From a virus, in the IMG/VR virus record IMGVR_UViG_3300045421_000330, positions 1 through 21,366 of that record: a stretch of 21,366 nucleotides of DNA; one strand, written 5' to 3'. Position 1 is the stretch's first letter. Every line of letters begins with the position of its first letter. The notes beneath the pieces are model-generated. The model saw only the letters and a list, made by a program, of their open reading frames with translations. It was not told the origin of the DNA and did not search any database. The position numbers were made by a program, and so were the translations under genes. Below, in pieces: positions 21,001-21,366 of the stretch.

Positions 21001-21366
21001 AACTATGTTTTTCCGGGCGGGATCAAAGGCAATCCAGCACCAGTGATAAGAAGAGATATACCGGTTATAACCGGTATTACATATAATATAACTGTTCCAA
21101 CTGGAGGAAAAATCAATGTTCAATATTTACGTCCATTGGTATATACAATTTCGGATCCACGTCCTCTAAAAGCAAAAATTTACAGAACTCCAGGAATATA
21201 CTCCTGGACTTGTCCGGCTGGAATAACTAAGATTAATATACTTTGCATTGGTGCTGGTGGTGGAGGCGGTTATGGAGCCAATGGTGGCTCTGGTGGCGGA
21301 GGCGGGGGTAAGTCCACCCTGGTCAATGCGCTGACCGGTACCAACTCGCAGGAAACCGGCCCCGTG
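6097..21366 (+). CDS. giant virion structural protein, baseplate-peripheral/tail-fibre type (3' partial, chimeric end)
   Basis: There are 5090 codons without a stop from the ATG at 6097, 28 nt after gp6, to the window edge. The body matches my recollection of the very large structural proteins downstream of gp6 in T4-like aquatic phages. Recognised blocks: start [31 protein letters not shown] with NYSNYHWNK (about 115-145); [12 protein letters not shown]-type and GFPLSY (about 820-850); [20 protein letters not shown] (about 1118); [19 protein letters not shown] (1478-1496); [19 protein letters not shown] (about 2984). Seven or more adhesin-like or lectin-like modules are interleaved and listed separately. 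Position and content suggest a peripheral baseplate/fibre protein that combines attachment with receptor contact; that role is inference. No signal peptide or membrane segment is evident. The last ~18 codons probably do not belong to it. Confidence 0.85.
   Translation, partial: [5090 protein letters not shown]
6619..6828 (+). other. degenerate cupredoxin-like domain in the giant protein
   Basis: Residues 175-244: [51 protein letters not shown]. This is the same arrangement as the gp6 insertion (strand, GxxxWIKT/WLQT, NNGxxxGxIxx). The copper-binding His is absent (GQGNLW) and no C-x-x-H follows. It is probably a structural beta-sandwich; I recall equivalents near the N-terminus of cyanophage giant proteins. 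Confidence 0.5.
8059..8190 (+). other. small beta element ([11 protein letters not shown] / [10 protein letters not shown] type)
   Basis: The residues [34 protein letters not shown] and DQPL follow the pattern V-x-x-G-D-x-(L/I)-x-x-x-x-G-T-x-(I/L)-G-T-V-x-x-I-x-x-x-x-(I/L)-T-L. This is a short sheet module that recurs in phage structural proteins. No function can be assigned. Confidence 0.45.
8893..9069 (+). other. DUF4214-like repeat, copy 1
   Basis: Residues 933-991 include [20 protein letters not shown], followed by [20 protein letters not shown]. The Y-x-x-(Y/V)-L-G-R-x-P-(T/D)-x-x-E-L core followed by two helices is the DUF4214 pattern, otherwise known from S-layer-like and surface proteins. 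A second copy occurs about 1930 residues later. Confidence 0.55.
12049..12168 (+). other. CBM5/12-like (ChiC-type) carbohydrate-binding module
   Basis: Residues 1985-2024 give W-x6[18 protein letters not shown] and end with NYWKEL. The aromatic start, YxxGDxVxYxxxxYxA core and W-x-x-L end match the roughly 40-residue CBM5/12 fold. A glycan-binding role at the tail tip is plausible but not shown. Confidence 0.6.
12715..13920 (+). other. SGNH/GDSL hydrolase-like domain, interrupted and catalytically inactivated
   Basis: Block I is [12 protein letters not shown] (12715-12750), where the nucleophile Ser of GDS is Gly2214. After about 210 unrelated residues the fold continues at [13 protein letters not shown] (13390). 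Block II is RSVGGSST with Gly2458 present. Block III is [14 protein letters not shown], where the Asn of GxND is Tyr2491. Block V is [10 protein letters not shown], where Asp is kept but His is Phe2587. Ser, Asn and His are therefore all lost. In active relatives this fold removes acyl groups from glycans; here a binding or scaffold role is more likely. Confidence 0.75.
12754..13389 (+). other. segment inserted between SGNH blocks I and II
   Basis: About 212 residues separate block I from the continuation of the SGNH fold, where about 10-20 residues would be usual. The insert looks beta-rich ([51 protein letters not shown]). I do not recognise it. It ends near [12 protein letters not shown]. 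Confidence 0.5.
14695..14868 (+). other. DUF4214-like repeat, copy 2
   Basis: Residues 2867-2924 contain [19 protein letters not shown] and then [12 protein letters not shown]. They align with copy 1 at Y-x-x-Y-L-x-R-x-P-T-x-x-E-L and L-E-x-x-I-K-N-S-x-E-A-K. The shared LExxIKNSxEAK ending is unusually strict and argues for duplication inside the gene. Confidence 0.55.
15041..17100 (+). other. conserved body of the aquatic T4-like giant structural protein
   Basis: About 690 residues I recognise as a conserved stretch of this family. Blocks include [76 protein letters not shown] and [14 protein letters not shown]. Near the end are [20 protein letters not shown] and the start of a linker. It has no enzyme motif and is probably the part that docks on the baseplate or the fibre hinge. 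Confidence 0.6.
17383..17865 (+). other. ILEI/FAM3-like (interleukin-like EMT inducer) domain
   Basis: Residues 3763-3923: [66 protein letters not shown] and IENYSG. The order 'x-x-dG-x-v-x-s-x-x-f-d, helix, D-x-I-i-v-v, L-x-x-x-G-G-s, Y-i-l-i-G-i-p-G' is that of the ILEI/PANDER-like fold, which also occurs in phage and bacterial surface proteins. In proteins of this kind it is thought to bind carbohydrate. Confidence 0.55.
18688..18912 (+). other. GVIxxNGERIxxF ... IRRGxxGT-type phage beta module
   Basis: The residues [34 protein letters not shown] and [20 protein letters not shown], then STVEDVS, form a module I recall as recurring in large phage structural proteins, often just before a Gly-rich or fibre domain. 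It precedes the Gly-rich domain here by about 20 residues. Confidence 0.5.
18976..19842 (+). other. glycine-rich adhesin-like domain 1
   Basis: Residues 4294-4582 start with [20 protein letters not shown] followed by [12 protein letters not shown]. A long run of GG-x, GAGG and GGGG segments follows, ending in [20 protein letters not shown]. The SxWTVPxxVxxIxVxxxGGGG opening and the [13 protein letters not shown] closing motif are typical of phage tail tip/fibre Gly-rich domains, probably polyglycine-type helical bundles involved in receptor recognition. Local G+C is clearly higher than in the rest of the gene. Confidence 0.8.
19855..19893 (+). repeat. ACA/ACT threonine-codon microsatellite
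   Basis: The run encodes [13 protein letters not shown], eight consecutive Thr codons after TTS, built from ACA and ACT triplets. It joins the Gly-rich domain to the next domain and looks like a slippage-made flexible linker. Confidence 0.8.
19915..20433 (+). other. jelly-roll-like fibre domain
   Basis: Residues 4607-4779: [60 protein letters not shown], and the closing [15 protein letters not shown]. The repeated aromatic beta-strands and the end motif (D/N)EAIYxSHVxLxLRG are familiar from tail-fibre proteins of aquatic phages after a Gly-rich domain. The jelly-roll/lectin label is an inference from strand pattern. Confidence 0.5.
21058..21077 (+). repeat. perfect 20-bp palindrome inside the giant gene
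   Basis: The sequence reads ATACCGGTTA and then its exact reverse complement. It encodes IPVITGI across the junction of two fibre domains. No regulatory role is evident. Confidence 0.85.
21172..21311 (+). other. start of glycine-rich domain 2 (truncated)
   Basis: [20 protein letters not shown], then [20 protein letters not shown] and GGGGGG, repeats the opening of Gly-rich domain 1 ([23 protein letters not shown]). The domain should continue for perhaps 150-300 residues, but the sequence changes character after 21311. Confidence 0.75.
21301..21366 (+). pseudogene. foreign fragment: P-loop (G1) of an RsgA-like GTPase fused in frame
   Basis: The last codons read [20 protein letters not shown] and then PV. 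Gly-x-x-x-x-Gly-Lys-Ser-Thr followed by LVNALTG and an SQETGPV-like stretch is what I expect in the G1 region of the circularly permuted ribosome-assembly GTPase RsgA, not in a tail fibre. Bases 21310-21366 contain 36 G+C of 57, far above the phage gene, and use CTG, GTC, ACC and TCG codons. The upstream part is Gly-rich phage DNA. It is most likely a chimeric assembly end. The exact join within 21301-21311 cannot be fixed because both partners encode G-G-G there. Confidence 0.7.

What the first reader, a model, noticed from the sequence alone, without database searches (positions are those of the whole stretch)
21301..21366. Contig end switches from phage glycine-rich DNA to an RsgA-like P-loop
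Gly-rich domain 2 runs into [13 protein letters not shown] with TNSQETGPV after it. That is a textbook GTPase G1 motif plus an RsgA-like extension, in G+C-rich codons. The join falls where both sequences encode G-G-G and could pair over GGCGGGGGTAAG-like DNA. A chimera is more likely than a real phage GTPase fusion. It matters because an automatic annotation would report a giant 'P-loop' tail protein.
Basis: partly seen in the sequence, partly recalled or inferred. Interest (0 to 1): 0.7.

Follow-up and report, generated by a model that had tools for sequence, protein, structure and literature searches.

The report
Chimeric contig end in phage assembly
The last ~57 bases of this phage contig are almost certainly a scrap of a bacterial GTPase gene (most likely rsgA) joined by accident to a phage tail gene, because two independent relatives of the phage carry the normal glycine-rich sequence at the same spot; this is an ordinary sequencing or assembly artefact.

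Summary
The 3'-open giant ORF (6097-21366) enters a second glycine-rich domain and then reads [20 protein letters not shown], a GTPase P-loop, to the contig end. Two IMG/VR relatives (contigs of 49,171 and 18,170 bases) match the window in register up to the GGT codon at 21307-21309 (108/129 bases over 21181-21309); from 21310 on identity is 11/57, about chance. In both relatives the protein continues [13 protein letters not shown]..., stays glycine-rich and ends in SYYEE; neither record holds an RsgA match. The tail has 84% GC at third codon positions against a mean of 26% for this ORF, a value none of its in-frame 57-mers reaches. Its best protein matches are RsgA P-loops of Acidimicrobiia (17/20 residues). 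No other viral contig scanned carries a Gly-run/GKSTLVNA join. The demonstrable overlap at the join is only 3-4 bases (GGT or GGGT), too short for a k-mer overlap, so a chimeric read at a low-coverage contig tip is the likeliest route (inference). The donor gene itself was not found; RsgA is likely but not certain, as dynamin-like GTPases share part of the motif. Not a real biological feature.

The parts
6097..21309 (+). Phage part of the giant 3'-open virion/baseplate-region ORF; the true C-terminus of the protein is not in this contig
   Evidence: ORF list; collinear with IMG/VR 3300045581_000655 at about 80-84% identity, the match ending at window 21308-21313; PHROG 10938 virion structural protein at the N-terminus
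21187..21309 (+). Start of the second glycine-rich domain (PF21722), cut off about 46 profile positions in
   Evidence: Pfam Gly_rich_2 E 7.3e-6, profile positions 2-46 of 226; relatives have the whole domain
21306..21309 (.). Probable join: GGGT/GGT shared by the phage Gly run and the GTPase P-loop
   Evidence: Relative 3300047550 has GGT GTA GGT TGG here; RsgA relatives have (V/A/S)-GGT AAG
21310..21366 (+). Foreign tail: fragment of a bacterial P-loop GTPase gene, most likely rsgA (G1 motif and what follows it)
   Evidence: 11/57 identity to phage relatives and GC3 0.84; 17/20 aa identity to Acidimicrobiia RsgA over 21307-21366; Pfam RsgA_GTPase best of all models for the 26-aa end, E 0.002, below the curated cut-off

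Best explanation
The window is a fragment of a tailed phage whose assembly ran off the end of real phage sequence inside a G-rich run and onto a chimeric read or library fragment. That fragment joined phage DNA to the P-loop of a bacterial GTPase gene, most likely rsgA of a G+C-rich bacterium (perhaps an actinobacterium) in the same sample. Shown: homology to the phage relatives stops at the GGT codon 21307-21309, and the last 57 bases are unlike the phage in codon use and encode a GTPase G1 motif. Inferred: that the join arose in library preparation or assembly rather than in a virus, and that the donor is rsgA.
For: Two relatives keep the register to 21309 and then continue as a normal Gly-rich domain to a stop codon; no copy of the fusion in viral contigs. 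The relatives contain no RsgA match, while all control genomes do. The tail has GC3 0.84 against 0.26 for the ORF. Its closest protein matches are RsgA genes of 349-360 codons in Acidimicrobiia, 16-17 of 20 residues identical. The break lies 57 bases from a contig end; in a virome study chimeric reads bridged host and virus sequence, usually at the extremities of contigs (PMC8376068; there RNA viruses and rRNA).
Against: No reads were available. The exact donor sequence was not found (best 44/60 bases), so the tail has not been placed in a bacterial contig. A real recombinant cannot be formally excluded from one contig.
Confidence: 0.95

Rival explanations
1. A real recombination in the virus: the phage picked up a piece of a host GTPase gene inside its tail gene, by illegitimate recombination at a G-rich microhomology.
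For: The reading frame is kept across the join, and phage tail genes are plausible sites for domain swaps (general knowledge).
Against: Frame keeping has a 1 in 3 chance. The join takes only the P-loop onward, cutting the GTPase inside its G1 motif. Relatives have the plain domain, no other contig carries the fusion, and codon use is entirely unlike the phage's.
Confidence: 0.03
2. A working phage-encoded GTPase fusion (giant tail protein with a P-loop domain).
For: In-frame GGGKST motif at the end of the ORF.
Against: The strand and G-x-S-G that precede GKS in RsgA-type GTPases are missing; the start of a Gly-rich domain stands in their place. Relatives lack it and have no RsgA match.
Confidence: 0.005
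3. Chimera as above, but the foreign piece comes from another P-loop family than RsgA, e.g. the dynamin-like GTPases of Acidimicrobiia with GKSTLVNSLSGLEVSETGPIRPTT.
For: They share ETGP[IV] with the tail, which the RsgA relatives found do not; 13/20 residues identical. For the 20 residues alone Pfam ranks MMR_HSR1 (E 0.0064) level with RsgA_GTPase (0.0086).
Against: RsgA relatives match better: 17/20, including T-x-S-Q-E-T-G. This rival changes only the donor, not the chimera.
Confidence: 0.15

Closest known systems
Virus-host chimeric contigs from chimeric reads (PMC8376068)
   Same: Foreign cellular sequence at the extremity of a viral contig, abrupt break of homology, no copy in relatives
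   Different: That study is of RNA viruses and rRNA; here a phage and a bacterial protein gene, and reads were not seen
RsgA (ribosome small subunit-dependent GTPase A; PF03193, TIGR00157), Acidimicrobiia members
   Same: G1 motif [17 protein letters not shown] with the same spacing (17/20 residues)
   Different: Only 20 residues present; no other GTPase motifs, no OB fold, no zinc domain; the two residues before GK are phage-derived glycines
Glycine-rich domain of phage tail/virion proteins (PF21722 Gly_rich_2)
   Same: [44 protein letters not shown]
   Different: Cut at profile position 46 of 226 by the join; whole in relatives

Membership tests
Artefactual virus/bacterium chimera at contig end | Homology to relatives stops abruptly at one point near a contig end | tested here: met
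   108/129 identical up to 21309, 11/57 after; blastn ends at 21308
Artefactual virus/bacterium chimera at contig end | The other side matches an unrelated cellular gene with different composition | tested here: met
   RsgA-type P-loop, GC3 0.84 against 0.26
Artefactual virus/bacterium chimera at contig end | Not seen in independent contigs | tested here: met
   0 viral contigs with the tail DNA or with Gly-run/GKSTLVNA; the two relatives lack it
Artefactual virus/bacterium chimera at contig end | Coverage drop or single bridging read at the join | not testable with these tools
   No reads available
RsgA GTPase (PF03193/TIGR00157) | Profile match above the curated cut-off | tested here: not met
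   18.4 bits against 30; only 20-26 residues are present, so no membership is claimed for the ORF
RsgA GTPase (PF03193/TIGR00157) | Circularly permuted GTPase motifs, OB fold and zinc domain | tested here: not met
   The contig ends 57 bases after the join, and upstream is a phage Gly-rich domain
PF21722 Gly_rich_2 domain | Profile match above the cut-off | tested here: met
   26.6 bits against 24.3, profile positions 2-46 of 226

The most novel reading that the evidence does not exclude
A genuine, recent illegitimate recombination in one phage lineage that put a bacterial GTPase gene fragment into the end of its giant tail gene.
Probability: 0.03. Interest if true: 0.3.

Novelty: not a real feature. 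Interest (0 to 1): 0.05.

Why it matters
Only as data hygiene: an automatic annotation of this virus record could report a P-loop or GTPase in a phage tail protein, and a host-prediction method using shared sequence could be misled by the last 57 bases. The protein should be annotated as a 3'-incomplete phage structural protein that ends at about 21306-21309.

Tried and rejected
Exact or near DNA donor: no match in E. coli genomes; weak matches in plasmids to many unrelated P-loop genes such as selB, ABC transporters and era; the best-covered one (Aeromonas caviae KAM479, L002) proved to be an ABC-F-like ATPase, not RsgA. A DNA search of 397 genomes of the order of the actinobacterial relative ranked selB (GHVDHGKSTLVKALTGTD) above rsgA because of the shared GKSTLV-ALTGT codons; SelB was rejected as donor because its next residues (PDRFEEE) do not fit NSQETGPV. 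An NCBIfam scan of the 20-26 residues was uninformative, as was the PDB sequence search, whose top hits were designed repeat proteins. The phage collection gave only weak matches to the Gly-rich part (Prochlorococcus phages and marine single-cell virus records). A misassembly through a shared k-mer was considered less likely than a chimeric read, because the shared stretch at the join is only about 3-4 bases (inference). The left end of the contig was checked for the same problem: it aligns to the relative from base 1.
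Full report
Observation. The window is a whole virus record of 21,366 bases. Its last ORF, 6097-21366, is open at the 3' end (5090 codons). Its last codons are GGT GGC GGA GGC GGG GGT AAG TCC ACC CTG GTC AAT GCG CTG ACC GGT ACC AAC TCG CAG GAA ACC GGC CCC GTG, i.e. a glycine run followed by [19 protein letters not shown]. Pfam finds the start of a second Gly_rich_2 domain (the first copy lies near 18985-19812), reaching only position 46 of 226; for the 26-residue end the RsgA_GTPase model is the best of all, at 18.4 bits, below its cut-off of 30. The motif is the only G-x4-GK[ST] match in six frames of the window.

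Relatives of the phage. A search of IMG/VR with the sequence just upstream of the join gave two relatives, 3300045581_000655 (49,171 bases) and 3300047550_005065 (18,170 bases), both 83% identical over the query. The larger is collinear with the window: 1-5628, 6956-17627 and 17734-21308 align in order. In both relatives the same glycine run continues as [22 protein letters not shown]... for some 200 further Gly-rich residues to ...ALFPNITSYYEE and a stop. In fixed register, window and relatives agree at 108 of 129 positions from 21181 to 21309, and at 11 of 57 from 21310 to 21366, about what chance gives. A codon-degenerate pattern for the end of the phage part found only these same two contigs.

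The tail. Its GC content is 0.63 and its GC3 0.84; the mean GC3 of in-frame 57-mers of the ORF is 0.26 and none of them reaches 0.84; among 57-mers with at most three glycines none reaches its GC either. A codon-degenerate pattern for [15 protein letters not shown] in the genome collection matched two contigs, both of actinobacterial MAGs (one labelled Ilumatobacteraceae). Their open frames (360 codons for L003) read [37 protein letters not shown] and the L003 protein scores as ribosome small subunit-dependent GTPase A, TIGR00157, 149 bits against a cut-off of 100. A third genome of the same class has 16/20 identical residues. In the RsgA genes seen, the residues before GK are S-G-V, S-G-A or S-G-S, never G-G-G, so the glycines before GK come from the phage side. 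The nucleotide identity to any gene found is at most 44/60, so the donor species itself was not sampled, and its phylum is a guess. Dynamin-like GTPases of the same class share ETGP[IV] and are a weaker alternative donor. Either way the piece is cellular.

Is the fusion seen elsewhere? No viral contig holds the tail DNA (36-base exact pattern), and none holds a degenerate GGGG-K-[ST]-T-L-V-N-A. The two relatives contain no RsgA-profile match, whereas all 14 control genomes ring.

Mechanism. The phage relatives share with the P-loop only GGT (3300047550: GGT GTA GGT), or GGGT if the donor codon before GGT ended in G. That is too short for a k-mer overlap in an assembler, so a physically chimeric fragment or read at a low-coverage, G-rich contig tip is the simplest route (inference). 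Chimeric reads bridging virus and host sequence, mostly at contig extremities, have been documented in viral metagenomics (PMC8376068). A biological recombinant is possible in principle but has nothing in its favour beyond the kept reading frame.

Verdict. The phage part should be taken as ending at about 21306-21309. Interest is low.

Noticed in passing
6097-21309: A giant virion/baseplate-region gene of over 5000 codons; in the 49 kb relative its C-terminal Gly-rich domain ends in SYYEE and is followed by ORFs of 204, 394 and 672 codons. Most of it matches no Pfam family.
   Followed up: partly
12715-13887: Within the giant ORF, an SGNH-hydrolase-like order of motifs by eye ([28 protein letters not shown]); no Pfam match, and the usual GDS serine and the final His are not obvious.
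   Followed up: no
8926-8982 and 14737-14802: Two similar stretches ([18 protein letters not shown] and [22 protein letters not shown], each followed by a variant of ES-IKNSxEAK) that resemble DUF4214-type repeats by eye.
   Followed up: no
12049-12120: Weak CBM_5_12 carbohydrate-binding module match inside the giant ORF (E 5.9e-5, 23.5 bits against a cut-off of 26.2).
   Followed up: no
5656-6069: The baseplate-wedge ORF (1675-6069) ends in a low-complexity Gly/Ser/Met-rich tail with tandem repeats (24, 6/12 and 78 base units), rich in G+C for this phage.
   Followed up: no
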